DNA of 64,000 bases, taken from positions 62,001 to 126,000 of the forward strand of contig JAJOHG010000051.1 of assembly GCA_021029095.1 (NCBI GenBank). Reading direction: 5' to 3'. The translations under genes and the position numbers were made by a program. Below, piece after piece: positions 24,298-47,529 of this stretch; the stretch's first letter is position 1; each line of letters starts with the position of its first letter. This stretch comes from Phellopilus nigrolimitatus (taxonomy: Eukaryota > Basidiomycota > Agaricomycetes > Hymenochaetales > Hymenochaetaceae). Below the pieces are notes generated by a model. The model did no database searches. It worked only from the letters and a program-made list of their open reading frames with translations, and had not been told where the DNA came from.

Positions 24298-24455
24298 ATG
24301 TTTGCCTTCCGGGATTTCGACTCTTCTGTTTGGCCAAATCAAGCGCCCTGACTCGAAGAGATATATGTACAACTACGCTATGCAACGTCTTCCACGCCGT
24401 TTGAACTCGATGGGACTGTTCTTTGTCGAGTTCAGAATCGGCCTGCGGCCGTGTC

Positions 24456-24848: not shown

Positions 24849-25711
24849 CCCTCTTTGAAAATTCCCCGCCTAACCAAGCACCAAACCGGACCACTGTTCT
24901 CGCAGTAAAATCATGTGCACTACGTTGCATGTTGCAGGAAAGACCGACAAATTCTCTTCAATTCCTCTTTCTGTGTCATGCCGGCCGCGTACATCATCAT
25001 GCTTTGACAACTCCCTCCTAAACTATTTCTGTTTTTGTAATCTAGGTATTCAGGAAGTGTTTTCTACTCGGGTTGTGCAACTCTCAGTGAGCCTGGTGTT
25101 CTGATTACCAATGTACCAGTAACTGGCTCTACAGTCATAACCGTTGGGCATAGTTTTGTGTCCTTGAGGATGTCTGCATGTATTGAAAGCTTATTTGCCG
25201 GTTGCGTGCCCGAGCAGAAGAGCTGGTAGCACAGAACAAAGCCATCATGCAGCATGAACATGTGCCCTGTATGTGACCAAGTGGCGAGGCAAAGTTGCAA
25301 ACAGTAGTGATAACTTTGTAACCATTGAGTAGCAATGTCACTGTATTGCCAACTGTTGATCTGATTATTTGCAATGCACATAATGATTATCATGCCACAA
25401 AGTTCCAGAGTGTAGCATAGAACAAACGTTATTCTCTGTTCTTTAACCCTAATTTTACAATTAAACTTTGAAGAATCCAGATAGGGGTAAAGGTAAAACA
25501 AAAATAGGAATTGGATCGCTGTGTAACATGTCACACTCACACTATGCATTCCAGCACGCAAAGGATGTGCGTTAGGACTTCCAGTTCGTTTGGTGCAGTG
25601 TGTACTATTTAATGGGGGTGGACGGGTTTCTGGTACAATTTGTACTATCTCCTTCCTTTCTGTCTCCTCTCCTTTCACTCGTTTCACTGGCACGTTCCAA
25701 TTCACTCGTTT
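24849..25711. other. Non-coding stretch shared by both duplication arms
   Basis: About 860 bp without a supported gene. Long tracts (for example around 25200-25450) align almost base for base with 44180-44530 in inverted orientation, so they were part of the duplicated segment. The last 100 bp hold the F-box promoter. Confidence 0.6.
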
Positions 25712-27405
25712 ATGGAACATCGCCAATTAACATCGCCGACGCGTCTACCCAATCTTCCTGTTGAATTGATTGTTCACATCTTCTCGTTTTGCAGCTTTGA
25801 TGATGTCAGGAATCTAGGTCGTGTAAGTCTTCCCTTCCGTCATCTGCTTTGAGTAGTTTAACACGATATACATCCCTAGACCTGCAGATATTTACGCAAT
25901 CTACACAACGCACGCCCAGTCTGGATCTCGTTGCTTCGAAATCTGGACATTGATCAAGCACCTGCGATTCCCCCATACTTGCGACTCGATTCTCTCTCGA
26001 CTAAAGAACTAAAAAAGACTGTCATCAAAGCCATACGCACTTCTGACACCTGGCACTCTCACGAGACTCTCCGTGTGTCTCGAATTATGGAGCTGCGCAT
26101 TAATAATACTGCTGACCCTGCCAACTTGGACGATATTGATCCTCGACTTCTTCCTGGAGGTCAGCATGTTCTTCTTAAACGTCGCGGACGGCTGGAACTG
26201 TGGTCGACCAACTCTGGCGAGCTTGTCTGGACTGTCCCTGCAGATGAAGAAAATCACGGTTGCATTTCATTTGATTTTGAGCTGGTTGAAGACGGCAAAA
26301 CACTAATGGTCGCAGGCGTGTTTCGCGACAAAGGCTCTTCGACAAATTCGACGATAATGTGAGTGCTCGTTTTATTGGTATTTGATAGGGAGAATCGAAC
26401 AGACATTTTGCATCTGTCAGCAGCTACGCTCGCGTTTTCTCCTATGACTTTGAGAGGAAAGAACCCAGGCCCATAATTGAACGTGTACTTCCTGCAACCG
26501 AGCTAACCCGTTTGATGATCCGAGGGGACTTCCTTCTCGTTCATAGTACGCATAAATTCCATGTCCTCCTTGTGAACTGGAAGACACAATCGTCTGTGAT
26601 ATTGAGTTACTCAGACCAGAGCGTAAGCTGCTTTCGTCATTAGCGTCTTGTCTTTCACAACTCACATTGCTGCTAATAGGGACGGGTAGTAAATGCACCC
26701 ACGGCTCTCGTTGGAGACCAGCACATCGTCGTCGCTCTCGACATCAACCCGCTCTCGCTTGTCGCACTGCCGCTCTCCTCGCTCGCCGGCCGCTGGTCGC
26801 AGAGCGCGCACCATGCCGAATGGGAGGTCATTACGATCGTTCCCGAGGCGCTGTGCAAACAGCGAGGTGGCGGCGCTGTTCTCCAGCTGATGCCGTCCGG
26901 GGTGTATGCCGTCGGTGCTGGGCCGTCGGTGCTCGCGCTCCATGCTTTTTCGCCCTCCTGGCGCGGTGCCGACGCACCCATGGAAATCCATATTGTTGCG
27001 TATGAACGCTCACTGGACCACCAGGGGACAAAGCGCCTCCACTCGTACCGCGTCCAGCTGTCGCGCGTCGCGGAGGCCGCGCGGGGCAACGCTCCTTGCT
27101 GTCAGCCGGCGGACAGCACGGTGTCAGACGGGCAGTGGCGGCTCGCGCTCATCGCCCAGCGCACCACGAGCACGAACTACGTGCCGTCAAATTCACACTG
27201 CATTATGAACTCAGGACGCATGCTCTCTGTGCTGGAAAAGCTTGTTTGCTTCTCACTCTTCCCGGGCGCGCTGTTGCCGGTCAAGATTTTAAACCTAGGC
27301 ATGAATACCCGGCCGGAGGAAGAATCGACGTCTGCCTCCGTTGAGCCATGGAGCGGTGCACTTACCATTGGGACACCGGGGCTAGTGAGGATAGTCCATT
27401 TTTGA
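25712..27405 (+). CDS. F-box protein (duplication arm 1 copy)
   Basis: Probable substrate adaptor of an SCF ubiquitin ligase. An N-terminal F-box is clear (LPVELIVHIFSFCSFDDVRN, continued after an intron as LGRTCRYLRNLHNARPVW). The rest, about 450 residues, is a beta-rich region with segments such as HVLLKRRGRLELWSTNSGEL and FLLVHSTHKFHVLLVNW. These suggest a degenerate beta-propeller, as is usual for mushroom F-box proteins that carry a quinoprotein- or WD-like C-terminal part. Four exons with GT-AG introns; the last runs from about 26681 to a TGA at 27403-27405. The reading frame is intact. A closely similar intact copy is at 42277-43968. The target is unknown. Confidence 0.85.
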
Positions 27406-29785: not shown

Positions 29786-31321
29786 TTAGCGCAAAGCCAC
29801 CGTGTCTGTAAACTTGCTTACAGAGTCGGACATCTCGTGGTGCTCGCTACCTTCCTTGTCCTCCGCGATCTCGTCCTCAAACGGGTGATACTTCCAGCCT
29901 CCATCCTCAGACCTCGGTTCGTAGTATCTCGCTGCCGACCCCGCAGAGAAAGAGCTTTCTGTTTGGTCGATGCTCCCTGTCGTCTCCATCTGCGAGATCG
30001 TCACTGTCACGGGCCGCGGCGGACGTGGGTAGTTGCGGTGGAGCGGGTTTTTCACGTTCGCCGTTAATGAATTTCGGTGCTGGCGGTCATGACCACTGCC
30101 TTGACCGGCAGCAGCGAATGTAGATAGCATGGCGTCAGAGCTGTAGGTCACAGCATCTGTGGAGAGACCGAGGCCAACGCGGACTATGATCAGAGAGAAC
30201 ACAACGCCCTATACAGGGGTTAGAAACGTAAAAAAACACGTTCCAAAAGAAAAGGGGCTTACTATGACTTGAGTGACCCCATCAAGAACGATGTACTGTG
30301 CGAAGCTGCCACTCAGATAGAGCGAAAGCAATATGATGAGACAAGCAGAATAGGCGGAGCCGGACTCGATGATGATCATCGCCGCTGGGAAAACGCTCGG
30401 TCCGGCTCTCACGGCGCCCTGCAGCCTCCTATGAATCCAGAAGATGCGCGCAGCGATAAGAACTATGTAAACGAGGCCATAATTAGTCAACATTTCTGGG
30501 GTCGGACGGGAGAGGACTAACGGGTGCAGGAAAAGTTCGTGAAAAGCGTAAGTGAAAAGAATGAGACGATCCAGTCCTGAAGCTCGCTGATGAATACTGG
30601 GGCGGTCGGGGAGGCCCGAGCGAAGCCTTGTAGCGCCCCAATGCCGACACCTTGGCACATCAGTCAATTCGAGAAAGTAAGAAGACGAGAAACGACCGAC
30701 TCACCTATACTTGCGATGAAACAGATGAGAATTGGTCCGTATATACGCTTGTCTCCCGAGTAAATCAGGTATAAGCGATAAAGCTAACAAGCCCGCGTCA
30801 GCAAGTAATTCAAACTTGAAGTGAAAAGAGGGTGGTAGAAAAAGATACGCACCATGAACCCATCCCCAACCAGAGTCTGCATGCAGTACGCCGTGCTTTT
30901 GAGTGCATATATGGGCGTGTTGACCATAGACAAATATTTCACTGTGTTTTCTTCGTCCAAATATGCGGTGAGCACTCTTCGGAGATCTGCCGCAACGTGC
31001 TGGCAATAGTTAGGGAAAAAGTCTTGGTAAGAGCCGGGATTAAACGTGGATGGTTTTAGCGTGGACGCACCACGGTAGCGAGGATGAACATGACGATCGA
31101 GACGATCAACATGGGCCTGTTGACGTGCTCATTCTTGCCCTTCTTTTTGAATAGCAGGACATAGACTGATAATGAGAACAAGAACGTGAAGAACCCTACT
31201 CGTCCGAATCAAATGTGAGCTTTGCAAAAATATAGTTAACGGTTGCTGAATCCTGCTCACCATATAACACACACTCTACGAAGATGGAAACGAGCGTCAC
31301 CTCGTCGATGCCGATGGCCAT
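29786..31321 (-). CDS. Multi-pass (7TM-like) membrane protein, Agaricomycete family
   Basis: Start at 31321 (MAIGIDEVTLVSIFVECVLY), stop TAA at 29786. Exons read in order FFTFLFSLSVYVLLFKKKGK, MLIVSIVMFILATVHVAADL, MQTLVGDGFMV, YRLYLIYSGDKRIYGPILIC, GVGIGALQGF, LTNYGLVYIVLIAARIFWIH, IIESGSAYSACLIILLSLYL and FSLIIVRVGLGLS. Together they give about seven hydrophobic spans, with the conserved DGFM and W-H-R type loops of a large mushroom family of unknown function. The C-terminal 110 residues are hydrophilic and Ser/Glu-rich, presumably cytosolic. Six or seven short introns. It is the first gene inside the spacer between the two duplication arms. Nothing in the sequence says whether it belongs to the peptide cluster. 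Confidence 0.8.
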
Positions 31322-32669: not shown

Positions 32670-34830
32670 TCACCGTCCCTCAGGCTTGGCATCTTCTTTA
32701 TGCCGCGAGGAGAGCCACCCCGCGACCCCTAGTGCAAACGCGCCCGCACACATGCACACCTATTGAATGTGAGAATATCGTGTGTTCAATGAGATATCCC
32801 GAACGCTCGAGTGGTTACATCAAAAAGACAGGAGAAAAGGCACGCACTCCACAGAAAACAGCAGGCCTGACCCAGAGGTTCTGCGATGTCAAAAGCGCTC
32901 CTGTGATTGGCGGGCCTACAGAACGAACAAGGTGCATTGTTAGAGTTACCCTCATCAAGAGAAGAGAAGAGCATGAAAAAACGATAGGTTGATCCAAGAG
33001 CATACCTATCAAACTTCCAATTCCTAAACAATCCGATCCGTAAAGAACGCGACAGTGAGTATACCTCCGTGGAAAGGGCCCGGAGAATCACGCACCGCCA
33101 ATACCGAAGCACACGCCAATGCGTGCTCTACATCAAAAAAGAGGGGGAGAAACGACGGAGGTTGGTTGAGTATCACGCAATTATCAATCTTCAACTCACC
33201 CTACTTCCGATACATTTTTCGAGAGGTTGGCAAGCATGGGCCCGAGGAGCGAGATGCCTATATACCCGAGAACAAAATCGGAAGTGAGCTCCTCTCGTTT
33301 GGATACACAACGCGACGGAGGATATAATCGGCACGCACATGCTCCGGAGAAAAACCCATATAGGACGGCCATGACTACGCTGCCTGCCGCATCGGTGACA
33401 GCGACCATGGAGAAAATGAGCACACCACACGCGAGCGTGCATGGCACGATGAGATTAAAGACGCCCGTTCGGTCGACGATGATCGTCGGTAAAACCCGGC
33501 CGAACGCGCTCGAGCCGTTGAGGATTGCAAGCTACAAGCCCAGTGAGTTCAGCGCATTCTGTAACCAAAAGCCAGGTCCACAGACCGTGTAGAACGCGAG
33601 GGTTTGGTCTACGCCGTGATCGACCGCGTCGAGTTGGAGGTAGAAAATGGGAAAGAATACGGCGGTGATGAGGAGGAACGTGCCGGCCGCCGCGACGACG
33701 TATGTCCGGTCCTTGAAGAACACACGCCAGTACGCGATCTGGTGCGACAGCTTCTTGCTCTGCGGGGGCAAGCGCGTCGTCATGAGCGCGTTCGCGACGG
33801 CGAGTAGCGCGAGATTAAGGAACGCGCTACAGCGCACGCCCCAGGCGAAGCCGAGGCTGCCGTGGATGAGTTTGTTGAGCATGATTGGGTGGACGACGCC
33901 CCCAAGCGAGGATGCGGAGGCGACGACGCCCATCACGAGCGAGCGCCGCCGCTTGAAGTGGTGGGCAACGACGCCCAGAGCCGGGACGTATGTCGATCCG
34001 ATGGCGATTCCGAGTCCGATGCCTTGAGCAAGGAAGAGCTGGTATAATGCAGTTAGGACGTGCATTAATTTGGCTTCGCAGGACTAAAATATATGACTGA
34101 CCTGGTACCATTTCTGTGGTTGCGAGATAGAAATCATGAAGAGACAGAAGACAAACAATACTGATCCCGCAAACATGACTTGACGACTGGAATGAAATAA
34201 TCAGTTCTATGGATATAATGCAAGGATTGGTTTTCACTGACAAGTAGCCGACATCCATGGCATATCCAGAAAATATTCCAATGCTGAATAGACAGAAAGT
34301 CTGTGCACTTCCGATCCAGCTTGATATCTTTCTTAGTATTGAACCATTCATCAAACACGAGAGGAGCTACCTAATCGCTGAGGATGATGAATGGTTGAGG
34401 TATTCGCGGACATAAAAGTCTGGTCGTTTCAAAGTTAGTCTCTGAATGATTCGGAATTTTGCTGAGCAGCACGTACCTTCGTAGACACCGAAACTATTCA
34501 CATAGCTATATTTCGTGGTAGTCAGCGCCCCAATGCTCCCATGCTCTCCAAAACGTCAGCACTTGCCCAGATGTACAGAACACGACTAGATATCTGCGGA
34601 TGAGCCAGATCAATCGTCTCTCAGGATAAGCGTGTGTCCGTGACTACTCACGCGCCCACCAGCGTCGACCAGGCCTGCCACCCGCCATCAGGTATCACGA
34701 CCTCCGCTGCTGTAGGATGTGGACGTTTCGCCTCCATGTCGTCAGCAGATTTTTCGTCCAACCCATCAGCGCCCCTCTCAAGCTCTCGAACTCTAAGGGT
34801 ATCGACCGAATCGCGTGGTGAGGAATCCAT
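32670..34830 (-). CDS. MFS transporter, monocarboxylate-porter type
   Basis: A 12-TM permease of the fungal monocarboxylate/MCH class in the plasma or an internal membrane. About ten exons. The N-terminus is hydrophilic, followed by IPDGGWQAWSTLVGA, the hallmark of this class, then YVNSFGVYEDFYV, SWIGSAQTFCLF, LAQGIGLGIAIG, VVAHHFKRRRSLVMGVVAS, GVVHPIMLNKLI, a long cytosolic loop, FYTLAILNGSSAFGR, GFFSGA, LLGPMLANLSKNVSEVGARI and GPPITGALL. One intron (34506-34566) has a GC donor. An 18-nt exon is needed near the GPPITGA block. The frame appears intact. It lies about 500 bp from the peptide-precursor gene in the same orientation, so it could export the peptide product, but this is inferred from position only. 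Confidence 0.87.
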
Positions 34831-35326
34831 GGTCGTCGTCGGCAGCGTCTTGCAGTCACCTAGCGCAGGATGTAAAAACCGCAATCAGCATGAAGTGTCA
34901 GGGTTTTATACCGGTTCCCCCATTGCTGTGATCTGTGCTTCGTAAATTAGGCGTGCTTGGACATCAACTAAATGCGATCGGAATCTTCTGATAAGTACGG
35001 CGCTAGCGGCCCCTTGAAGGTATCATGTTCAGAGTACAAAACATCAATCAATCGTATTCAAGCACATGTATGCATGTACCGGCCCTAAACAGCGGCCGCT
35101 ACTCGAATTTCGAAAACATAGTATTCTCTACGCAAATACTTCGCTTTCTTCCCGGGAACCATCAGGATCCCAGCCTAGAGTTACAGAGAATACATACCCG
35201 CTTGGGAAAACATTCCAGACACGAATAAAATTACAGAACAAAGGCATGATCATCCGATCCAATGTTAGTCATTTTATGAGCTGGACGGCCGCGCTTCTGA
35301 AGAAATACTTCTTGCACTGAACCGGC
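34831..35326. other. Short intergenic spacer
   Basis: About 500 bp between the transporter start and the precursor stop, both genes on the minus strand. It should contain the transporter promoter. No feature stands out. Confidence 0.5.
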
Positions 35327-36160
35327 TCATGCCCTGAAGTCCTTCTCCAGCTGTGAAGGCTCACGCTTGAAGTCCTTCTCGAGGTCTGAGCTCAGCATCA
35401 GTACAGCGCCTCGCAAAAGATGAACCATAAAGGATGCTCACCATTCCTCTTGAAGTCCTTCTCGAGCTGGGCAGGTTCGCGCTTGAAGTCCTTCTCCAAC
35501 TCTCCACGCTTGAAACTCTTCTCGAGCTGGGACGCCTCGCGCTTGAAGTCCTTCTCTAACTCTGAACATATCGTTAGGGCGTAGCTCTCATCGAGAAACA
35601 AAGGCGACTTACCGTTCCTCTTGAACGATTTCTCGAGTTGCGTGGGTTCGCGCTTGAAGTCCTTCTCAAGCTCGTTGCGCTTGAAGCTCTTCTCAAGCTG
35701 AGTCGGCTCGCGCTTGAAATCCTTTTCCAACTCTAGAGAACCATCAGTACAGAACTCTTATTGGATAGCGAAGACAACTTACCATTCCTCTTGAAGTCCT
35801 TCTCGAGTTCTGAGCGCTTGAAGTCCTTCTCGAGGTCTCCGCGCTTGAAATCCTTCTCGAGTTCTGGATTACGTCAATATACAGCTTTCAAAAGGTGGCG
35901 GAGACGTGGCGACTCACCATTCCTCTTGAACGATTTCTCAAGCTGCGTAGGTTGACGCTTGAAGTCCTTCTCGAGCTCCGAGCGCTTAAAACTCTTCTCC
36001 AGTTGGGAAGGTTCGCGCCTGAAGTCCTTCTCGAGCTGAGAAGGCTCGCGTTTGAAGTCTTTCTCGAGCTCGGAGCGCTTGAAATAATCCTCGAGTTTGG
36101 AAGGCTCGCGCCTGAAGTCCTTTTCGAGCTCAGAGCGCTTGTACCCGTATTCGATGGATT
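35327..36160 (-). repeat. Alternating coding repeat (27 and 33 nt units with KR)
   Basis: DNA-level tandem repeat encoding the peptide units of the precursor. A 27-nt unit (7-mer plus KR) alternates with a 33-nt unit (9-mer plus KR). It is interrupted only by phase-1 introns of 45-57 nt. On the plus strand it shows as recurring CTTGAAGTCCTTCTCGAG. Synonymous differences between units are frequent, so the peptides are conserved beyond what recent DNA duplication alone would give. Confidence 0.85.
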
Positions 36161-36327
36161 CTGCATTTCCGCTCAGTTCGATACAATATACGCGATCGAA
36201 AAAGACGATGCATACCGGAACGCTTGAAGCTCTTCTCGAGCTGGAGACCGTTAGCCTCGGGCACCGGGCTCGCGAGGACGGCGGTTGCGAGGAAGAGCGT
36301 GGCGGCTAGGAACTTGAGGTACTGCAT
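35327..36327 (-). CDS. Kex2-processed repeat precursor (secreted multi-copy peptide precursor)
   Basis: Six exons (36216-36327, 35918-36160, 35783-35863, 35613-35732, 35442-35561, 35327-35385) encode about 244 residues. The first exon gives a signal peptide (MQYLKFLAATLFLATAVLA) and a short pro-segment. After that the whole chain is about 22 peptide units, nearly all bounded by KR or RR, the Golgi Kex2 signal. Two unit types alternate: a 7-mer of consensus [SNG]-E-L-E-K-D-F and a 9-mer E-P-x-Q-L-E-K-S/D-F. An early unit ends IEYGY and another EDYF; these are the only two with Tyr. The last unit lacks a dibasic end. All five introns are phase 1 and split the same codon at a unit boundary, so exons are multiples of the repeat. 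Processing would release many small acidic peptides with a C-terminal aromatic residue. The UstYa genes next door suggest modified peptides. A signalling-peptide role is the alternative. Confidence 0.85.
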
Positions 36328-37553
36328 GTTAAAAGAGGAACGCGCGGGAAAGTGTCGAGAGGCGAGTGGGCTGAAGGATGGGATGGACCTTGTCCTTTAC
36401 TCTTTGGCTTCCGGATCGCCTGACCTTTTAAGCAAACACGCTCAACCACATCGATCGCCAATTTCCTGGCTGATAGCTCGCATATGCTATTACCTATTCA
36501 CGTGGCGACCGTATCGTCGCGTATATGTGCAGGCGCTACCGGCTCCGTAGCGCTTGCTCGTCCGTGATCATCTTTGCAGAGGCTACAGCTAGTCCTTACT
36601 TTTCGGAGGTAACGATCCATCAGAGCACGCCTTTCTCTGCTGATATCTCATTGTTGTTTTCGAAGATGAGAGCAGTTCTACACCTCGTGCGCGCGCGCAC
36701 CGCCACTCATGGCTGTGAATGAATTGTAATAGCGCTCAGCGCACATAGAAGTCGGGAAAGAGCGGTGCGGAGGCATTCTGGACTACGTGCAAATTCTTTC
36801 CATCAGATCCAAGAGAAGAGGATAATTGGCTGAAGGCTTGCTTGCCTACTTGGCATGAGCTGGATTATCAAAACTGCAATATCAAAAATGGTTTGAAGAA
36901 CGAATAAGCGAAAAGAGGAGCAGGCTCAGCAGAGAGCGGGCGAGTCGCCGATGTGTGATTTACGTGCTGCATTTCCTTTCTGGGCCGCCGACGTGCCGAT
37001 CCTCCGTTATCATATCTACCTTACGTAGATCTACCGTTACACGTTCCGCAAGGCTGTGTAGCGACCGTGGACAGGTTGACAGCTGAACTTAACGTCTATC
37101 TGCCCTCGTGGCGTCGTTTGTGGCTGCAGAGCGATTGCTTGACAAGACCAGTATCCTGTTCATATCCAGTCAAACATTGCTTTGATTTGACGAAAGCATG
37201 CAAGCATGGCGAGTAAAGGCGAGTTCACGAACTGCGATGATATCGCGCAACCGATGGGGGAACAACCCCAACGTTGCTGCGTATTTTAGCCTGTGTCTGA
37301 TCTTGGTCGGCCGATTGATGCAGCTGTTCGCATAAACGATGTACGTACATGTACATATTAAATTGTCCATGGACCACGCGCTGCGCTGCTGTAACCCGCC
37401 CCGCGTAAACCACTTGGACAACGGTCGGAGATCACTCTCACCTACCGACGAAATGCTTCGAGGGTCTGCATTCACAATCTAGATCGTGAAGTTGCAGAAA
37501 CCAGCTTTTCCCCAGCTCTGCGACCGGAACTGTCCTCCCCGTTCGAGCCCGCT
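36328..37553. promoter_or_regulatory. Divergent intergenic region between precursor and UstYa gene
   Basis: About 1.2 kb between the divergent starts of the peptide-precursor gene and the first UstYa-like gene. It presumably carries both promoters and would allow shared control. No coding frame with features and no defined binding site was recognised. Confidence 0.5.
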
Positions 37554-38327
37554 ATGCTCGTGAAGCGCGACACTTTCTGCGAGGTGCTCATCGTGCTCTG
37601 CGCGGTGGTCAACGCATACCTCTTTGCGGGCCGCATCTGGCGCTCATACTCCTACGCGTCTCTCAAGCACACAGAGTCGGACGCCTATAGTAAGCACCAC
37701 TTTTCGTCTTACCCGCGCGCTGGTCTCACAGATGCCCTCGTCGCCTCAGCATACGCCGGCGACGACTACCCGGAGCACCTCCCACTCCCACAGCCCACGC
37801 GGCCCGCCGCGCCCGTCTCCTTCTCGCTCGCGCCCGACGCGTTCCCGATCTCAGGCCCTGGCGCCGCCGCACAGTGGGCGTCCATCTACCCGCCGGGGTA
37901 CGGCTTCGTGCGCATGGGACGCGCCGCGCGCCTGCTGTGCGTCGCGCAGTTCCACCAGCTGCACTGCGTCGAGAAGATGCGCATCTACCTCGACGACCCG
38001 CTCGGCGCCGGCGCGCACCTCGGCTTCGCGCACCAGCAGCACTGCATGAACTACCTGCGCCAGCTCTTTCTGTGCGCCGCGGACCGCACGCTCGAGTCGC
38101 TCGAGCCGCGCGACGTCGTGCTCGCCGTGGGCTCGGACGGCGGCGTGGACCTCGACGAGAAGCACGATCTGGCGACGCGCAGCGGGCCGGGCGTTACGCA
38201 TATGTGCGGCGACTCGAAGGTACTGTACGAATTCGTGGGCGACAACTATGCGAATTGGAAGGCGGCGTGGAATATCAGCTCGCCGTTCGACGCCGAGGGC
38301 GATGAACACGCAGGCCATAGCCAATAG
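37554..38327 (+). CDS. UstYa-like (DUF3328) membrane-anchored oxidase candidate
   Basis: About 240-257 residues. One N-terminal hydrophobic anchor (EVLIVLCAVVNAYLFAG) precedes a lumenal domain. Both family HxxHC motifs are complete: HQLHCVEKMR and, about 30 residues later, HQQHCMNYLRQLFLC. A C-terminal block with CGDSKVLYEFVGDNYANWKA matches the usual C-D-W...Y..V..NY..W ending. UstYa proteins catalyse oxidative cyclisation, hydroxylation or related steps on ribosomal peptides in the ustiloxin, asperipin and cyclochlorotine pathways. A 42-nt in-frame stretch (about 37690-37731) has GTAAGC and CACAG ends and could be an intron; the protein reads through either way. The start at 37554 is the first Met before the anchor. 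It faces away from the precursor gene across a 1.2-kb shared upstream region. Confidence 0.88.
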   Translation: MLVKRDTFCEVLIVLCAVVNAYLFAGRIWRSYSYASLKHTESDAYSKHHFSSYPRAGLTDALVASAYAGDDYPEHLPLPQPTRPAAPVSFSLAPDAFPISGPGAAAQWASIYPPGYGFVRMGRAARLLCVAQFHQLHCVEKMRIYLDDPLGAGAHLGFAHQQHCMNYLRQLFLCAADRTLESLEPRDVVLAVGSDGGVDLDEKHDLATRSGPGVTHMCGDSKVLYEFVGDNYANWKAAWNISSPFDAEGDEHAGHSQ

Positions 38328-38514
38328 AAGCTTTCTGTGTATATGTATGTGTGAAGACGAAGCGAGGTACCATAGCTCATATTCGATGACTTCGATTCTT
38401 GCGTACTAGGATCTGATGAAGTAGTTGACAGGCATGGGAGAAATTGAATAAATTGATATAGCGATTCCTCGGAGACAAGTACAGCGAGCAGGCAGTCGTT
38501 GATACTAAGATACA

Positions 38515-39685
38515 CTATACCCTATTCATATCGAGGGCTTCTGCACAATCGTAATGGCTTGGGGGAAAAAAAGACAGTCAGATCACACCCGAAGAAACCC
38601 GCCAGGGAAAAACGCCGACTCACCCATCCGCGGCGTCGTCTCGGGCTGCTCCTGCCAGAACTCGACGGCGCACTCGTCGGCGGCCTCCGTGGGGCACGCG
38701 AGCTCGAACATATGCAGCGTGCCCGTGCGCCCGCACGCGAACTCCGCGCTGTGCGCGCGATGGGCCTGCTGCACGACGAGATTCGAGAGCAGCGCCGTGC
38801 GCGCGGGGCGCGTCGCCCACGCGAGCCGTCGCGTGTCGAGCTCGCCCGCGGACGCGTCGAGCTCCCACACCTCGAGGTTCACGAGCTCACGCGCGAGTGA
38901 CAGCGTGCGGTTCTGCGCGTGCAGCAAGGCAGGATCGGGCATGGCGCTCGCAAGGGAGCAGCGCCCGAGATTGTAATCTTGCACGCGGATCTGCATGATC
39001 ATCGACACCTGTGGTTCGCGAATCCAGCGCCGGCGCCCATGCCAGTTTAGAAGCCAGTAATCAAGCCAGAAGAATGTCAGAGCATGAGAAAGCCAGTCGC
39101 TGGGAAGCGGAAGAAGGAAGCGCGGGCTCACGTCTTTGTTGATGATCACATGCGGCTCGCCAGGCGAAACGAGCCCGTTGAATGTGATGCGTGCGCGCCC
39201 GTCGCTGGGGAAGACACGCTCGGGCTCCGCGCGGCTGACGGGCGCGAACACGTGTGGGAAGATGTGGAGCGCCTCCGGGAGCGCGTCCCGCGCTGTGTCC
39301 CGGTCGACGCGGTCGAGCCCGATGTACATGTTAGGCCGATACAGCGTGTTGGCGCGCGCGAGGCGTTCAGCGCGTGTGGGGACATGGGGGGAGGGTGCGA
39401 AGGCGCTTGAGGGGACGAGGTGCGGGAAGACGATGTTGAGCACGGCGAGGAAGAGCGCCGCGGCCGAGCAGATTTGGACCCATAGGGGAGCGGGCTTTGA
39501 GGACTTGGTCGTAGCTGGACAAACAGTAGTAAGTATGGTAAGGCACAAGGCGCGGGTGCTCTAGACTCACCTGCATCATACGAGTCGGGGTCGTCGATGA
39601 AGACCTCCCCGTCGCCATCGAGTGACTTGCGCTCGTGCGCAGCGTCGTGAGTCGGCAGCAGCGAGTATTGCTCGTCCGTCGACAT
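38515..39685 (-). CDS. Membrane-anchored protein with C-terminal beta-sandwich-like domain (But2-like?)
   Basis: Four exons from ATG 39685 to TAG 38515. A 40-residue cytosolic head (MSTDEQYSLLPTHD) precedes one TM segment (ICSAAALFLAVLNIVF). The extracytosolic part contains LYRPNMYIGLDRVDRD, ARITFNGLVSPGEPH, MIMQIRVQDYNLGRCSLA, LEVWELDASAGELDTRRLAW and GTLHMFELAC. I recall this layout from mushroom proteins annotated with a But2 C-terminal domain that often sit beside UstYa genes; the recollection is moderate. The 126-bp intron after HVIINKD keeps the frame if retained. The last exon adds only about eight residues. It converges on the first UstYa-like gene, with 187 bp between the stop codons. 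Its function is unknown; a partner or scaffold for the UstYa enzymes is a guess. Confidence 0.6.
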
Positions 39686-40397
39686 TGGTATCAATCCAGC
39701 TTTAGCAGAGAGGAAATTAGATTGATACCATCCTCAGTCCTCACAGCTCAATCCCCCAAATGGGACGCAGGTAAGTAGATCATAGCATCTGATGATGGCA
39801 GGCTGGTCGTATCTGGTTCTGCGGGTGATCGGAGGCAGAATGATGGTAACGATGTGCACGCTTAGATAGTCGAGCCGGGATGTACGGCCTCAACGATGCG
39901 GTACGCACGGCGCGGCTTGTGGAAGAAATTATGAAGCCGCCACCGCTACCATAGACCCATTCGGACTACGCCTGCGTGCTTCAAGCATATGGTATACCGT
40001 CAGCTATATGTAATCATTCATATGTCAAACTCCCGTGTGTACCATAAAGCACTCAATCATCTCATTTTTCACCCGCAGTAGAAATTCGCAAATGTGACGA
40101 ACATGGAAAGGACATGCATTGCAAAGTCAATGCAAAGCTTACCTTGAATTACACCTGATAATTGCCTTGTCAAGCATTAGCAAACTCCAGTATAGCTAGG
40201 CTCGCCGCCACTTCGAAAGCGCTCGAACAGTGGCGGACGGTGGCGGCGGTCGGACTCACGGCAATTCCCCTTGTAGACTTTCCTAGCTATATAACACCAG
40301 TGCTGAAAGAAATTCCTTCTCATTACCCCGCCCAAAGTCCTTGCTCACGAGCCTATAGTGTAGCTCCTAGTTTATCATTCTCTGAGCACTGCACAAG
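39686..40397. promoter_or_regulatory. Divergent intergenic region
   Basis: About 710 bp between the divergent starts of the membrane-anchored protein and the RidA-type gene. AT-rich in the middle. No ORF or specific site is supported. It must contain both promoters. Confidence 0.5.
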
Positions 40398-40910
40398 ATG
40401 CCGGAATTTGTCTACACCAAGGACGCGATCCAGCCCATGGCTGTCTTTTCGCAGGCGGCGATATCAGGCAAGCATGTCTTCGTGTCTGGAAACATCGGCT
40501 GCAAGAAGGACCTCAGTGGCCTTGTGTCGGGGGACGTGAAGGAGCAGACGGTGCGCGCGATACGCGATTCTACCTTAGCTCTCTAACGACACCCATCTAA
40601 TCCTGATTATACAGAGAGCGGCGTTGAAAAACATAGAGGTCGTCTTGAAAGCGTCTGGATCCGGGCTGGAGCACATCGTCAAGGCGAACTGCTACCTGAA
40701 GAATATGGACAGGGACTTTAAACCTATGAACGAAGTTTATATAGACGTGCGTAATATTCTTCCCGTCGTCTTCGTGGCTTGCTGAGACCTGATGGCCATC
40801 TCGTGCAGTTCTTTGAAAAGGGCAAGATGCCCGCTCGTACGTGTGTCGGCGTCGCGAGTCTGCCATTGGGCGCTTCTGTTGAGATCGAGTGCATCGCAGA
40901 GATCCCTTAG
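40398..40910 (+). CDS. RidA / YjgF / UK114 family protein
   Basis: Three exons (40398-40550, 40615-40746, 40809-40910), about 128 residues, normal for the family. RidA proteins deaminate reactive enamine/imine intermediates released by PLP enzymes; some family members act in natural-product pathways. Conserved blocks: YTKDAIQPMAVFSQA, VFVSGNIG, NIEVVLKASGSGLEHIVKAN, YLKNMDRDFKPMNEVYID, PARTCVGVASLPLGASVEIE (the Arg is the substrate carboxylate contact) and CIAEIP at the end. The protein looks intact. It lies between the two UstYa-like genes, so a role in the peptide pathway is possible. A housekeeping function is equally likely. Confidence 0.92.
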
Positions 40911-41248
40911 CAGCTTTTAAGTCGCCAATGAAGTCTGTAGATCCGTTGTAAAACAGCTTGTTGTAAACTAACTGCGACGGCGAGACGAGACGAAAGAATG
41001 AATGATTTGACCAACGTCTGCAAAACTGAAGCTGTAATTCGTTGCTTTCTCCATTTCCCAGACCGTCAGAGCTACATTTTCTGTACACTCGACCTACATA
41101 TTAACATTTACACATTTTTCACGGAGCTCAAGACGACCTGCCATATCTCGCGGGTTTCGATCAATAATAAATCCAATGTCGAGACCTGTCAGCCAGTTTG
41201 AAGACGTTCACGAGGACGCTAGCAACGCCCGCCGTACATAGCCGCACA

Positions 41249-41936
41249 TCAGACCAGCAGCTCCGGCCGCGCGTCCAGCTCTTCCCGCGCCCACTCGTCG
41301 AAGTTCTCCTCCGCCGCTCCCCACACCTGCTCCCAGTCCGCGCAGTCCGTGCGCGTCGTGTACGGCAGCACCGCGCGCCCGCCGTACTCGCTGCGCACCA
41401 TCTCGAGGTGCGCGTCCGCGGCGCACACGATCGACTCGCGCAGGTAGTTCAGGCAGAAGTGCGCGCGCGCGCCCGGCGGCGTCGCCGGGTCGTGTGCGCG
41501 CGCCATCACCTCCGCGCGCACGACGCCGAGGCACTCGAGCTGGTGAAACATCGCGAGGCGGAAGGGCCGCCCGTCGACGTGTACGACGCCCCGCCCGCGC
41601 GGCAGCGCGGACGCCCACTCCGCCGCGCCCGCGGCCGTCTCGAGGCGGTAGTGCACGCTCTCTTCGGGTGTCAACGCTGCGTTGCGCAGGCCCTCGACCG
41701 GCCAGACCTCAGGAATACCACCCTCTTCTGTGTATAAATATAAGAATGACAGACGAGCGCAATATTGCGTGAAAACATTCACGTTGTGCGTTGGCTTGTC
41801 TGCGGTGGAATCGCGACAAGACCGATGCAGTATCTGCGTCCGAGAGGAGGTTGAAGAGGGTGAAGAGAGCGACCACCGCAGCGAGCACGGCACGGTTCTG
41901 CGAATGGCGTTTGATGAAGGCGGACGCGTTCACCAT
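41249..41936 (-). CDS. Second UstYa-like (DUF3328) protein, degenerate His motifs
   Basis: Two exons (41783-41936 and 41249-41727), about 210 residues. The N-terminal anchor is AVLAAVVALFTLFNLLSD. The family fold is clear from WPVEGLRNAALTPEESVHY, FRLAMFHQLECLGVVR and ARAHFCLNYLRESIVCAADA, and from the C-terminal DWEQVWGAAEENFDEW. Both HxxHC motifs are altered. The first reads HQLEC (the second His replaced by Glu). In the second the spacing gives RAHFC (both His positions replaced). It may be a non-catalytic partner of the complete homologue at 37.6 kb, a variant enzyme, or a decaying gene with an open frame. Its sequence is GC-rich and otherwise constrained, which favours a functional protein. 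Confidence 0.82.
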
Positions 41937-42276: not shown

Positions 42277-43968
42277 TCAAAAATGGACTATCCTCACTAG
42301 CCCCGGTGTCCCAATGGTAAGTGCACCGCTCCATGGCTCAACGGAGGCTGACGTCGACTCCTCCTCCAACCGGATACCCATGCCTAGCTCTATAATTTTG
42401 ACCGGCTGCGGCTCACTCGGGAAGAGCGAGAAGCAAACGAGTCTTTTCCACACAGAGAGCATGCGTCCAGAGTTCATAATGCAGTGTAAATTTGACGGCA
42501 CGTAGTTCGTGATCGTGGTGCGCTGGGCGATGAGCGCGAGCCGCCACTGCCCGTCTGACACCGCGCTGTCCGCCGGCTGACAGCAAGGAGCGTTGCCCCG
42601 CGCGGCCTCCGCGACGCGCGACAGCTGGACGCGGTACGAATGGAGGCGCTTTGTCCGCTGGTCGCTCAGTATGTGTTCATACGCAACAATATGGATTTCC
42701 ATGGGCGCGTCGGCACCGCGCCAGGAGGGCGAAAAAGCATGGAGCGCGAGCACCGATGGCCCAGTGCCGGCGGCCCGTCCCTCGGACGGCGCCAGCTGGA
42801 GAACGGCTCCGCCACCTCGCTGTTTGCACAGCGCCTCGGGAACAATCGTAATGACCTCCCATTCGGCATGGTGCGCGCTCTGCGACCAGCGGCCGGCGAG
42901 CGAGGAGAGCGGCAGTGCGACGAGCGAGAGGGGGTTGACGTCGAGGGCGACGACGATGTGCTGGTCTCCAACGAGAGCCGTGGGTGCATTTACTACCCGT
43001 CCCTATCAGCAGCAATGTGAGTTGTGAAAGACAAGACGCTAAAGACGGGAGCAGCTTACGCTCTGGTCTGAGTAACTCAATATCACAGACGAATCTGTCT
43101 TCCAGTTCACAAGGAGGACATGGAATTTATGCGTACTATGAACGAGAAGGAAGTCCCCTCGGATCATCAAACGGAAGAGCTCCGTTGCAGGAAGTACACG
43201 CTTAATTACGAGCCTGCCTTTTTTCCTCTCAAAGTCATAGGAGAAAACACGAGCGTAACTGCTGATATATTCAAAATGTCTGTTCAATTGTCACTATCAA
43301 ACACCGACAAAATGAACACTCACATTGTCGTCGAATTTGTCGAAGAGCCTTTGTCGCGAAACACGCCTGCGACCATTAGTGTTTTGCCGTCTTCAACCAG
43401 CTCAAAATCAAATGAAATGCAACCGTGATTTTCACTATCTGCAGGGGCAGTCCAGACAAGCTCTCTAGAGTTGGTCGACCACAGTTCCAGCTGTCCGCGA
43501 CGTTCAAGAAGAACATGCTGACCTCCAGGAAGAAGTCGAGGATCAATACCGTCCAAGTCGGCAGGGTCAGCAGTATTAATGCGCAGCTCCATAACTTGAG
43601 ACACACGGAGAGTCTCGTGAGAGTGCCAGGTGTCAGAAGTGCGTATGGCTTTGATGACAGTCTTTTTTAGTTCCTTGGTCGAGAGAGACTCGAGCCGCAA
43701 GTATGAGGGAATCGCAGGTGCTTGATCAATGTCTAGATTTCGAAGCAACGAGATCCAGACTGGGCGTGCATTGTGTAGATTGTGTAAATATCTGCAGGTC
43801 TAGGGATGTATATTGTGTTAAAAATACTCAAAGCAGACGACGGAAGGGAAGATTTACACGACCTAGATTCCTGACATCATCAAAGCTGCAAAACGAGAAG
43901 ATGTGAACAATCAATTCAACAGGAAGATTGGGTAGACGCGTCGGCGATGTTAATTGGCGATGTTCCAT
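42277..43968 (-). CDS. F-box protein (duplication arm 2 copy)
   Basis: Paralogue of the gene at 25712-27405 with the same exon pattern. The F-box begins MEHRQLTSPTRLPNLPVEL and continues IVHIFSFCSFDDVRN. The later parts (HVLLERRGQLELWSTNSREL, FLLVHSTHKFHVLLVNW, PSVLALHAFSPSWRGADAP) differ from copy 1 by scattered substitutions only. No stop, frameshift or splice-site loss was found, so both F-box copies appear usable. Differences cluster mildly in the C-terminal third. As for copy 1, the likely role is substrate recognition in an SCF ubiquitin ligase. Confidence 0.83.
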
Positions 43969-44853
43969 AAACGAGTGAATTGGAACGTGCCAGTGAAACG
44001 AGTGACAGCAGAGGAGACAGAAAGGAAGAAGATAGTATAAATTGTACCAGAAGCCCGCCCACCCCCATTTAATAGTGCATGCTGCACCAAACGAACAGGA
44101 AGTCCTGACGCACATCACGCAAAGGTGCGAGCTGGAATGCATAGTGTGAGTGTGACATGTTTCAGAGTGATCCAGTCCCTATTTTTGTTTTGTCTTTGCC
44201 CCTGTCTGGATATTTCGAAAATTAATTGTAAAATTAGGGTAAAGGAACAGAGAATAATGTTTGTTCTATGCTACACTCTGGCATGATAATCATAATGTGC
44301 GTTGCAAATAATCAGATCAATAGTTGGCAATACAGTGACATTGCTCATGAATTGTCAGCTCAGTGGTTACAAAGTTATCACTACTGTTTGCAACTACTGT
44401 TTGCAACTTTGCCTTACCACTTGGTCACATACAGGGCACATGTTCATGCTGCATGATGGCTTTGTTCTGTGCTGCCAGCTCTTCTGCTCGGGCACGCAAC
44501 CGGCAAATAAGCTTTCAATACATGCAGACATCCTCAAGGACACAAAACTATGCCCAACGGTTATGATTGTAGAGCCAGTTACTGGTCCATTGGTAATCAG
44601 GCACCAGGCTCACTGAGAGTTGCACAACCCGAGTAGAAAACACTTCCTGAATACCTAAATTACAAAAACAGAAATAGTTTAGGAGGGAGTTGTCAAAGCA
44701 TGATGATGTACGCGGCCGGCATGACACAGAAAGAGGAATTGAAGAGAATTTGTCGGTCTTTCCTGCAACATGCAACGTAGGTGCACATGATTTTACAGCG
44801 AGAACGGTGGTCCGGTTTGGGACTTGGTTAGGTGGGGAAATTTTCGAAGAGGG
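43969..44853. other. Non-coding stretch shared with duplication arm 1
   Basis: Aligns in inverted orientation with 24849-25711. Long identical tracts include the one around GTTGGCAATACAGTGACATT. No gene supported. Confidence 0.6.
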
Positions 44854-45165
44854 ATGCCGAATGATCAAATGCTAGCCGAACCTATTCGTGTTTGCCCGCA
44901 ACCGCAACCGGATGCAAATGAGGACTTTGACCCTTCCAAAATCCAGTATATCGATTGGGACATCGTCTTCGTGAAAAAGATCCAACACACCGTGGCGGCT
45001 GCGCTATACGCGACATGGCTTGCGCAATCCCTCGAGGTACTTTCGCTCCGCGAAAATTACCTGTGGTGTCCTTCGCGCCCCAACGTATGTCCGTGGTGCG
45101 AAGACTTGTCAGAAGATTGCTCTCAAAACACGAAACACCGATGCGATCGGTTTTACGCGGATTGA
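44854..45165 (+). CDS. Small Cys-cluster ORF, arm 2 copy
   Basis: Begins MPNDQMLAEPIRVCP and keeps KIQYIDWDIVF, TVAAALYATWL and WCPSRPNVCPWCED, so the cluster has lost one Cys (S-R-P replaces S-C-S). After the cluster the frame differs from the arm 1 copy, implying an intron in this area or an indel. Function unknown. Its conservation over both arms suggests it was part of a gene when the duplication occurred. Confidence 0.4.
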   Translation: MPNDQMLAEPIRVCPQPQPDANEDFDPSKIQYIDWDIVFVKKIQHTVAAALYATWLAQSLEVLSLRENYLWCPSRPNVCPWCEDLSEDCSQNTKHRCDRFYAD

Positions 45166-45409
45166 CTGGTCTTCGAAAGAAATAAAGACTCGTAAGCATA
45201 CGCGATTTCTTCGACTTCTTGGAACTCTAGGGCCGAGCGAAATAGGATAAAGTAGTTGCTGGCTGATTCTGAAGGCGAACTGAAGAACAGTCCTTCGAGT
45301 TCAAACGGCGTAAATAGACGTTGCATAGCGTAGTTGCACATATATTTCTTCGAGTTAGGGAGCTTTGATTTGGCCAAACAGAAGAGTCGAAATCTCGGAA
45401 GGCAAACAT

Positions 45410-47529
45410 TTACATGGGTTTGTCTGCGAGCCAACGTTTTAGCATCTCCAAAGACTCGACAGGCTTATCATGCGGAACCTGCGAATGCAGGTAATCAGCT
45501 ATTCCATCAAAAAAGAATAAACACAAAAGACAGACCAAATGGCCCGCGCCATAAATTGTCGTGAACGTAAAGTTCCCATATGCCCTCGTCTTCCCTGCCG
45601 GCTCCCCATTCACGAACCACTCCGTCAACGGCGAGCCTGCGAATGCTTCTTTATTCGCCCAGTCCATGTCTAGCGTCCACCGCTCATTTCCAACCCAGTT
45701 TGCGATGAAATCGTAGGTGCCTGCGTAGATAAGCACCTTCACCCCGCGCGCAAGAAGCTCTGGGATGTACAGTTGAGTTTGGTGCAGCTGGTCGCCGCTC
45801 GCCCAGAAGCGGTCGAACACATCCATGGCCATATTGGTGAAATTGCCGAACGCATGGTCCACCCCGAGCATCTTTCGTACCTCGGGCAAATTGAGGTAGG
45901 CTACGATATCATTGTCATTCGATTCTAAGTCCTGTAAAAACATTCAAGAGATCAAAATTATCCTACAATTCTAGTGGGTAGCAGCCTTTGTCTGTGTCGC
46001 ATTTCTTCGATAGGTCGTAGTAGTTGTAACCTATATTTCGATGAGCGCTGGCCTTTCCTAGCAGATGAGTGAGTCGAAGTACCAAGACTGATATATGGCA
46101 TCATGAGCTTTTCATTGCAGAAGTCGAACGCTGCTCTACAATCGATCTGATCGAAATAGTCTATGCAGGATTTCTTGGACCACCTCTCGCAGCGAGGTAA
46201 CTGCAGGTATGAGAAGTGCTTGAGATACGCGTAATCAATCTCAAAGGAGCGAAAGGGAACTAACAATTTGTTTCATGCGGACACACGTACTAAAGGTCGT
46301 CAGCGAAAAGTTAGGGCCGTCCTGGTTTATTAAGGAGATACCTAATTTGTTGAACAGGAGCAATCGATACTGCCGTGCATTGTATGTCATAGTAAGAGCG
46401 TAGGAGGCTACATGGATGTAAGATAAGGATTTATTTCGTTGAATGCCAACGCACTAGAAGAAGTCTGTCGCCCCATTTCCTACCTCGGCATCAGTTGCCA
46501 ACTTCGTTCAACATTTATAACGTAAATATTCTCACCTATCATGACTGATTTCAAGTTCACTGGACTAAACCCCTTCGAAACGAGCATTTCGTTCTGGTCA
46601 TAAACAGCAGCAGCGTAGACGGGGAGGTATCGTCCCTAGATTAAAGATCTCAATGTCCAAGACCACGTTCAATTGATAGGTGGGATGTACTGCGTAAGAC
46701 TCGCCAGTCAGATGTAAGTTTCGGCCCTTGAACTTGGGGAACGTTTCAAAGAAAGCAGCAATGAATCGCGCGATATCATCTCCGGCTTCCTCAGTTGTAG
46801 ACTACTCAATAGGAGCGTAAGTAGACGTCAAGAATTATAATCAGGTCATGATAGGCTGGTCGATGAAGAATATGTTCGCATTTGAATTCCATGAGTAAGG
46901 GTTATATTCTGTGCTGTTCAACGAAACGATATTGCATGGTCCTGTACTTTGGCATTAGCTTCCTTCATCAAATATTGTAAAATGGTATTTAAAAAAGGAC
47001 CTAGCTCTAAGAAGAGGCCCATTGACGACGAACCACCGGGTCCTTCAGAAAGAGTTTAACGAGTAAAATCTAAAACAGTATGGAAAACATACCGCCATTG
47101 GTCCATAGAAGGACGTCATCATCATCCGGATCACTTCTGCTCTCGAAGAAGTAAAAGAAAAAGTGCTTGGCTCCGACGTCGATATATCCGGTGTACGAGC
47201 TATCGAGGATGAAGATTATTGGTGAATTCTGCGTTTGACGAGGGCGGAAACATCACGAACGCGACATTGCCGTCACAGAAGTTGGATTTCTTGATTCGAG
47301 CACTTCTACCGGGGAACGCAGGATGAGAGAAAGTCGTAAAATGGTCGGACGAGACGGTCGTAAGTTCCAGAGACCTGATATGTCAGACGTCAGACAGTTG
47401 TCGATTCCGTGTAGGCGGTGCTTCACACACCCGTGCCTGCTGGTCGTGAACACGTTCTGTGACCCGACAGATGCTCTTGCGACGCCAGCAAGGAAGACTA
47501 GCGAGTACAGGGTGTAGAAAAAGTTCATT
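45410..47529 (-). pseudogene. Serine carboxypeptidase S10, broken copy
   Basis: Paralogue of 22122-24297, starting MNFFYTLYSLVFLAGVA. It keeps most family blocks, including [19 protein letters not shown] and GHLVPHDKP. Around 46830-46860 about 45-50 bp are missing compared with copy 1. The loss removes the [11 protein letters not shown] segment and the 5' splice site that follows it, so the frame runs from FFIDQP into a TGA. A second defect lies at about 45920, where the acceptor used by copy 1 (GGCAG) reads GACAA, leaving no in-phase splice. The 3' end, from [12 protein letters not shown] on, is otherwise well preserved, so inactivation looks recent. Confidence 0.82.

What the first reader, a model, noticed from the sequence alone, without database searches (positions are those of the whole stretch)
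32670..41936. Candidate ustiloxin-type RiPP cluster in a basidiomycete
A Kex2-repeat precursor sits within 6 kb of two UstYa-family (DUF3328) genes, an MFS transporter and a single-pass membrane protein of a type I associate with UstYa genes. In ascomycetes this combination makes cyclic peptides (ustiloxin, phomopsin, asperipin). To my knowledge such pathways are characterised from ascomycetes only. The cores here lack Tyr except in two units, so any cyclisation would involve Phe, Lys or Glu, or new chemistry.
Basis: inference. Interest (0 to 1): 0.92.

Follow-up and report, generated by a model that had tools for sequence, protein, structure and literature searches.

The report
Mushroom peptide cluster with putative receptor
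A wood-rotting mushroom carries, at more than one place, a gene set that would cut a repeat protein into many short peptides and oxidise them with a copper-type enzyme, next to a gene for a membrane protein that could be their receptor, which would make the unexplained pheromone-like peptides of mushrooms testable.

Summary
The window (Phellopilus nigrolimitatus by near-identical proteins) holds an intact six-exon Kex2-repeat precursor (KEP1, 35327-36327 -), a canonical UstYa gene 1.2 kb away, a second UstYa with a degenerate metal motif, a But2-like single-pass protein and an MFS transporter. A third locus (C401) has a different KEP, two UstYas, a But2-like gene and a distant 7TM relative. 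UstYa1-like and 7TM-like genes appear to share a contig in 3 of 6 other named species. The precursor is as much alpha-pheromone-like as ustiloxin-like: all 9 longer units start with a Ste13-type dipeptide, so all 20 regular units would give heptapeptides of type xxLEK[DS]F. Tyr is in 2 of 21 units; no methyltransferase or tyrosinase was detected (tyrosinase test inconclusive). Best reading: a Ste13-type KEP whose Phe-ended heptapeptides are oxidised by UstYa1 and serve as a secreted signal. KEP plus UstYa in basidiomycetes was already counted in print; the 7TM link and the Ste13/Phe design I did not find there. No chemistry is shown.

The parts
29786..31321 (-). putative seven-helix membrane protein (7TM), 7 exons, 387 aa; no Pfam or NCBIfam family
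   Evidence: (public model P0017 differs by one residue)
32670..34830 (-). MFS transporter, 13 exons, 452 aa
   Evidence: MFS_1 8.4e-27
35327..36327 (-). Kex2-processed repeat precursor (KEP1), 6 exons, 244 aa; 20 of 21 units have the form ..LE[K/D]xF, 19 of them followed by a dibasic site, the last by RA
37554..38327 (+). UstYa1 (DUF3328), intron 37690-37749, 237 aa, both HxxHC motifs intact
38583..39685 (-). single-pass membrane protein with But2-like domain, about 294-307 aa (end of last exon uncertain)
   Evidence: relatives beside UstYa pairs at C401 and C334
40398..40910 (+). RidA-like protein (Rid family), 3 exons, 128 aa
41249..41936 (-). UstYa2 (DUF3328), 2 exons, 210 aa, degenerate motifs HQLEC and RAHFC
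22260..27405 (.). left arm of a long inverted repeat around the cluster; holds an S10 carboxypeptidase-like gene
42277..47399 (.). right arm of the inverted repeat; second S10 carboxypeptidase-like copy

Best explanation
The locus makes a secreted oligopeptide from a Kex2-repeat precursor. Shown by sequence: signal-like N-terminus, dibasic sites, 20 of 21 units with Leu3, Glu4 and Phe7 (counted in the last 7 residues before the dibasic site), and an X-Pro/X-Ala dipeptide on all 9 longer units, so that Kex2, Kex1 and Ste13-type trimming would turn both unit types into one heptapeptide class, [S/N/T/G/A][E/Q/D/K]-L-E-K-[D/S]-F (one unit LEDYF). Inferred: in the Golgi UstYa1, a canonical two-HxxHC (binuclear copper type) enzyme, oxidises the core, most likely at the invariant Leu/Glu and the C-terminal Phe (as victorin is closed between a C-terminal Phe and an inner Leu); the But2-like protein and the metal-poor UstYa2 act as membrane partners; the MFS exports; the product works as a signal between hyphae or to other organisms rather than as a mating pheromone. 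The neighbouring seven-helix protein is the candidate receptor (about 0.35 on its own).
For: All 7 genes align to the other haplotype (C88) without stops or exon indels (splice sites not checked one by one). Within-genome replicate: KEP2, 7TM, MFS, UstYa1 and RidA at C555:51.3-62.7 kb and C109:3.3-14.1 kb, in another order, paralogue dN/dS 0.13-0.24 for the four non-KEP genes. KEP2 (C555 copy) keeps the plan: Glu4 and Phe7 in 7 of 7 units, Leu3 in 6, and EP, EA, EA on its 3 longer units. Diverged third locus C401: another KEP ending LMDF, two UstYas, a But2-like gene and a 7TM relative at 24-33%. UstYa1-like and 7TM-like genes on contigs of equal length in 3 of 6 other named species (S. vaninii with tags 4037/4040, G. 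androsaceus 20,978 bp, D. bispora). All six metal ligands invariant in the 15 aligned members, two of them from this species; substitution of these residues abolished CctR activity (PMC12435403, passages). Leu3 is written with five different codons in KEP1, so identity is selected, not only recent copying. Proprotein-convertase P-domain and DPPIV_N matches exist in the genome. 7TM: seven hydrophobicity peaks and N-out/C-in charge pattern.
Against: No transcript, peptide or enzyme data. KEP peptides found so far in mushrooms, Ste13-type ones included, are linear (PMC9769878). UstYa-linked KEPs are usually Tyr-rich (65.6% of repeats, PMC7329392); here Tyr is in 2 of 21 units. Three other UstYa loci showed no KEP and no 7TM, though only about 3.4-5 kb on each side was read, less than the 9 kb between KEP2 and its UstYa. 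Two 7TM relatives away from UstYa (C555:112k, C622:40k; 7 kb each) have no KEP. The C109 copy of KEP2 has lost one dibasic site and one core Phe, so that locus may be decaying, and the KEP scan missed that copy. The window and the C555/C109 locus stem from one duplication and are not independent. No structure could be computed; a first hydropathy script with a higher threshold did not flag helix 3; no match to known receptors in Pfam or PDB sequences.
Confidence: 0.55

Rival explanations
1. Ustiloxin-like defensive cyclic peptide: the cluster is an ordinary dikaritin-type RiPP pathway whose product is a toxin or antifeedant, with Phe instead of Tyr, and the 7TM is an unrelated or self-sensing neighbour.
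For: KEP, canonical UstYa, second UstYa and MFS; victorin shows Phe/Leu closure (PMC9233826, passage); DUF3328 is the class-defining enzyme in the newer definition (PMC12048977, passage).
Against: Ste13 dipeptides on 9 of 9 longer units; Tyr nearly absent; no methyltransferase match at the locus for two families; 7TM co-duplicated and apparently linked in other species.
Confidence: 0.25
2. Linear Ste13-type KEP peptide, as SGVAADW in Pleurotus; the UstYa genes beside it act on something else.
For: Same precursor plan and length, acidic-aromatic C-terminus, and such peptides were detected linear in mushrooms (PMC9769878). P-domain and DPPIV_N matches present. Other UstYa loci without a KEP nearby exist.
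Against: KEPs turned up at 3 of 6 sampled UstYa loci, while the same scan found none outside these in the fetched stretches (it missed one known copy, on C109); UstYa1 keeps every metal ligand.
Confidence: 0.17
3. Chance or segmental co-duplication: unrelated neighbours copied together.
For: C555 and the window are paralogous segments, so they are not independent; MFS genes are common and not enriched near KEPs (PMC7329392).
Against: Gene order and orientation are reshuffled yet the five genes stay within about 11 kb; C401 is a diverged locus with the same kinds of genes; cross-species UstYa-7TM linkage.
Confidence: 0.03

Closest known systems
Dikaritin (ustiloxin, phomopsin, asperipin-2a, victorin) pathways of ascomycetes
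   Same: signal-bearing multi-core precursor with Kex2 sites, UstYa (DUF3328) enzymes, MFS; victorin also is closed at a C-terminal Phe
   Different: basidiomycete; Tyr nearly absent; Ste13 dipeptides; no methyltransferase or tyrosinase detected (the latter inconclusive); 7TM, RidA-like and But2-like genes in the set; second UstYa lacks the full copper motif
Alpha-pheromone-like, Ste13-signature KEPs of Agaricomycetes (Pleurotus KEP 1091723, SGVAADW)
   Same: X-Pro/X-Ala after dibasic sites, heptapeptide, C-terminal Asp-aromatic
   Different: those peptides were found linear; the main text of that paper does not contain UstY, DUF3328, receptor or GPCR (term search); here two unit types converge on one heptapeptide class and UstYa is adjacent
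Basidiomycete KEPs with DUF3328 nearby (Umemura 2020, 103 of 1680)
   Same: the KEP-UstYa combination itself
   Different: counted there; this precursor found no match among the candidates scored from public proteins, and 7TM, RidA and degenerate UstYa partners are not in the passages I saw (its tables were not read)
Ascomycete alpha-factor with its Ste2 receptor
   Same: Kex2/Kex1/Ste13-type precursor and a seven-helix candidate receptor
   Different: the 7TM matches no Pfam receptor family, and a UstYa enzyme is involved; basidiomycete mating pheromones are a-type (PMC9769878)

Membership tests
Kex2-processed repeat protein (KEP) | secretion signal and several similar units separated by dibasic sites | tested here: met
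   the signal was judged by eye from the N-terminal hydrophobic stretch, no signal predictor was run
Ste13-type (alpha-pheromone-like) KEP | X-Pro/X-Ala dipeptide after the dibasic site | tested here: met
   9 of 9 units of the longer type (EP 7, QP 1, EA 1); the 11 shorter units have none
Dikaritin / UstYa-RiPP | DUF3328 protein with two HxxHC motifs beside the precursor | tested here: met
   UstYa1
Dikaritin / UstYa-RiPP | multiple DUF3328 proteins | tested here: met
   two; UstYa2 lacks full HxxHC motifs
Dikaritin, original five-gene definition | tyrosinase in the cluster | tested here: inconclusive
   no Tyrosinase match in the whole genome, but the 14 control genomes were silent too; not among the 25 families listed for 91 of 136 window ORFs of 110 aa or more
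Dikaritin, original five-gene definition | methyltransferase in the cluster | tested here: not met
   Methyltransf_25 and Methyltransf_11 match 28 and 15 places in the genome, none in the window, at C555:51-63 kb or at C401:41-51 kb; other methyltransferase families not tested
Dikaritin / UstYa-RiPP | aromatic core residue for cross-linking | tested here: inconclusive
   Phe7 in 20 of 20 regular units, Tyr in 2 of 21 units; Phe suffices in victorin by PMC9233826 (passage)
Dikaritin / UstYa-RiPP | oxidatively modified or cyclised product | not testable with these tools
   needs mass spectrometry
G-protein-coupled peptide receptor (for the 29.8-31.3 kb gene) | seven membrane helices, N-terminus outside, C-terminus inside | tested here: inconclusive
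   seven hydrophobicity peaks, the third weak (1.08); K/R 5.0, 2.8, 2.9 in loops 1, 3, 5 against 1.9, 1.2, 0.1 in loops 2, 4, 6 over 60 of 91 relatives, loop borders set by eye; helix 3 not flagged; structure prediction never ran
G-protein-coupled peptide receptor | homology to a known receptor family | tested here: not met
   no Pfam receptor family in 60 members, no PDB sequence match, none in NCBIfam

The most novel reading that the evidence does not exclude
A widespread mushroom signalling module: a UstYa-modified, Phe-ended heptapeptide (alpha-factor-style precursor) sensed by a physically linked, previously unclassified seven-helix receptor family, with several peptide-receptor pairs diverged together in one genome. 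It would be a chemically modified counterpart of alpha-factor/Ste2 that uses none of the known basidiomycete mating-pheromone parts.
Probability: 0.3. Interest if true: 0.88.

Novelty: new variant of a known kind. Interest (0 to 1): 0.62.

Why it matters
Basidiomycetes carry many alpha-pheromone-like KEPs although their mating pheromones are of the other type, and no function is known; knockouts of six KEPs in Coprinopsis showed no apparent phenotype (PMC9769878, Discussion). A locus that ties such a precursor to a UstYa enzyme and a candidate receptor gives a concrete ligand, enzyme and sensor to test. If the enzyme acts on these nearly Tyr-free cores, it would extend UstYa chemistry to Phe/Leu/Glu heptapeptides in mushrooms and could explain products missed by searches for unmodified masses.

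Tried and rejected
Precursor homologue search: the 8000 candidates sharing most words were scored, none at E<=0.01; the query is of low complexity, so this is weak evidence of absence. UstYa1 in IMG/VR: nothing. Two Pfam calls failed on wrong frames and one RidA model was off by a base; corrected. CtsR and other Pfam matches of the precursor look like low-complexity noise and were dropped. PDB matches of the UstYa profile: the 60 shown of 98 are almost all antibody light chains or fragments, at E 0.028 or worse, taken as chance. A repellent-type (Rep1) structural protein was set aside because the units are short and highly charged (inference). A mating-pheromone role was set aside on PMC9769878's statement that basidiomycete mating pheromones are a-type. 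S10 carboxypeptidases in the flanking repeats were considered as C-terminal trimmers, but no copy matched in the fetched parts of C555, C109 or C401. A laxer KEP scan gave false hits; the stricter one gave only the KEPs and other-frame readings of them, and missed the C109 copy. A script for two-site KEPs crashed, so weak KEPs in L042, L044, L045 were sought only with three or more dibasic sites. In the dN/dS script exons were carried over by alignment; inserted bases (61 in the 7TM, 66 in the C109 MFS) and gapped codons were left out.
Full report
What is there. The window is G000:C457:62001-126000 of a 56.4 Mb assembly that looks like two haplotypes (paired contigs such as C457/C88). Public proteins on a contig of the same length (221,050) name it Phellopilus nigrolimitatus. 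Seven gene models splice into open frames: 7TM 31321..29786, MFS 34830..32670, KEP1 36327..35327, UstYa1 37554-38327, But2-like 39685..38583, RidA-like 40398-40910, UstYa2 41936..41249. The final UstYa1 model is identical to the public one and the 7TM differs by one residue. The But2 match is weak.

The precursor. KEP1 has five introns, all phase 1; the four inside the repeat split the second codon (Glu/Asp) of a unit, so the gene seems to have grown by copying exons, now of 81, 27, 40 and 40 residues. Of 21 units after the leader, 20 have a regular length. Counting the last seven residues before the dibasic site, Leu3, Glu4 and Phe7 are present in 20 of 20, Lys5 in 19; Leu3 uses five codons. 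Eleven units are plain heptads; nine have two more residues in front, and in 9 of 9 these are EP, QP or EA, the Ste13 signature. Removing them gives heptads again. The odd unit is SESIEYGY; the last ends FRA without a full dibasic site. Against the other haplotype KEP1 differs at one core residue and two leader residues.

The replicate. The same genome has a paralogous set at C555:51.3-62.7 kb and on its partner C109:3.3-14.1 kb: KEP2, 7TM, MFS, UstYa1 and RidA. Identities to the window (C555) are 87% (MFS), 78% (7TM), 76% (UstYa1) and 81% (RidA) with dN/dS 0.13-0.24 over both contigs (exons carried over by alignment, gapped codons left out). But2-like and UstYa2 gave no match there. In the window the order is 7TM, MFS, KEP, UstYa1, RidA; at C555 it is KEP, 7TM, MFS, UstYa1, RidA with 7TM, MFS and UstYa1 turned round. 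KEP2 (119 aa) keeps Glu4 and Phe7 in 7 of 7 heptads and Leu3 in 6, and EP, EA, EA on its three longer units, one of which ends KHKR; Lys5 is not kept. The C109 copy has lost a dibasic site and one Phe, and one EA is VA.

The third locus. On C401 (partner C169) a short KEP of 83 aa has four units ending DLKKLMDF, the last ending in F-stop. It lies 2.3 kb from a UstYa, with a second UstYa, a But2-like gene between them, and a 7TM relative at 24-33% identity. I read six UstYa loci: three have a KEP and a 7TM (window, C555, C401); in three neither was found (C101, C334:437k, C334:1411k). But there only about 3.4-5 kb on each side was read, and KEP2 lies about 9 kb from its UstYa, so these negatives are weak for the KEP; for the 7TM the whole-genome search lists nothing near them either (best candidates only). 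One further UstYa place, C334:504k/C252, has a stop in its frame and was not read. With about 5.3 KEPs per basidiomycete strain (PMC7329392) in roughly 28 Mb per haplotype, a KEP within 10 kb of a given gene is expected in about 0.4% of cases (my arithmetic); window and C555 count as one event.

Beyond the species. Of six other named species with a UstYa1 relative, three have a 7TM relative on a contig of equal length: Sanghuangporus vaninii (tags 4037 and 4040), Gymnopus androsaceus (20,978 bp) and Dendrothele bispora. For the other three (Amylostereum, Hermanssonia, Hypsizygus) no 7TM relative is in the list of 91. Contig identity is inferred from equal length; their DNA could not be read, so a KEP there is untested.

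The enzymes. Of 16 UstYa1 relatives I aligned 15, two from this species (P0016, 144 aa, dropped); both HxxHC motifs are invariant. In CctR, substituting these histidines and cysteines abolished activity; the enzyme binds two coppers per monomer and works as a dimer (PMC12435403, passages). UstYa2 has HQLEC and RAHFC, lacking 3 of 4 histidines; the C401 partner has HQLQC and LTDHC; a relative at C334:1411k shows HALEC and HFC in two different frames, its model unresolved. UstYa2 is still under constraint between haplotypes (5 synonymous, 3 non-synonymous changes). A canonical UstYa, a But2-like gene and a metal-poor UstYa-like sequence occur together at the window, C401 and C334:1411k: probably a working trio, perhaps with the poor copy as a dimer partner (inference).

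The membrane protein. 91 proteins match at E<=0.001; the named ones are mushroom-forming fungi as far as I recognise the names (no taxonomy look-up). No receptor family of Pfam matches in the 60 of 91 aligned, and no PDB sequence. Averaged over the 60, hydropathy has seven peaks above 0.6 and positive charge lies in loops 1, 3, 5 and the tail, as for an N-out, C-in receptor; helix 3 is weak and was not flagged at a stricter threshold. The fold is untested, since structure prediction was always busy.

How it may work. Shown: gene structure, repeat design, constraint, linkage. From established knowledge of these families: Kex2/Kex1/Ste13 processing; P-domain and DPPIV_N matches exist here. Inferred: oxidation by UstYa1 at Leu/Glu/Phe; export; signalling through the 7TM. 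RidA may clear imines formed by oxidation; this is speculation, and other RidA genes exist in the genome. Dikaritin partners: two methyltransferase families match 28 and 15 places elsewhere, none at these loci; tyrosinase is inconclusive because the control was silent too.

Compared with print. KEP plus DUF3328 in Basidiomycota is known as a count, 103 of 1680, and 17 of 76 KEPs resembling putative basidiomycete pheromones had DUF3328 nearby (PMC7329392, passages). Basidiomycete KEPs with STE13 signatures are described (PMC6339444, passages). Sixteen UstYa-like genes are noted in Pleurotus, six developmentally expressed (PMC8893723, passages). Ste13-type KEP peptides such as SGVAADW were detected linear in mushrooms (PMC9769878: outline, passages, Introduction and Discussion). 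I saw no characterised basidiomycete UstYa product and no KEP-UstYa-7TM link in ten searches of an open-licence library only; most hits were seen as listings.

Verdict. Real cluster, partly as read: a new variant that merges an alpha-pheromone-like precursor with UstYa enzymes. Interest 0.62; if the 7TM is the receptor, 0.88.

Noticed in passing
window 22260-27405 and 42277-47399: Cluster bracketed by arms of a long inverted repeat (77-99% per block), each with an S10 carboxypeptidase-like gene (C-terminal exons 89-92% identical); seen on both haplotypes.
   Followed up: partly
G000:C401:42045-42355 (L043), allele C169:1683-1990: A third, short KEP with core DLKKLMDF beside two UstYas, a But2-like gene and a 7TM relative.
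   Followed up: yes
G000:C401, about 42.95-43.2 kb (L043), upstream of KEP3: A reading frame that looks like an alpha/beta hydrolase (judged by eye from the translation).
   Followed up: no
G000:C334:1411k (L045) and C334:437k (L044): Two similar UstYa loci; L045 also has But2-like and HALEC-type UstYa-like sequence, L044 only weak remnants of the latter.
   Followed up: partly
window 36327-35327: KEP introns lie at one position in the repeat and all in phase 1, which suggests growth by intron-bearing exon duplication.
   Followed up: partly
G000:C608:104-106 kb and C622:38-40 kb: Methyltransf_25 matches lie about 2 kb from two 7TM-family places that have no UstYa match.
   Followed up: no
window 19958-21346 and 15453-16733: Dihydroorotate dehydrogenase-like exons and a TPR protein outside the cluster.
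   Followed up: no
L026 3880-3356 (C109): KEP2 allele with a lost dibasic site and an altered core; possible decay on one haplotype.
   Followed up: partly
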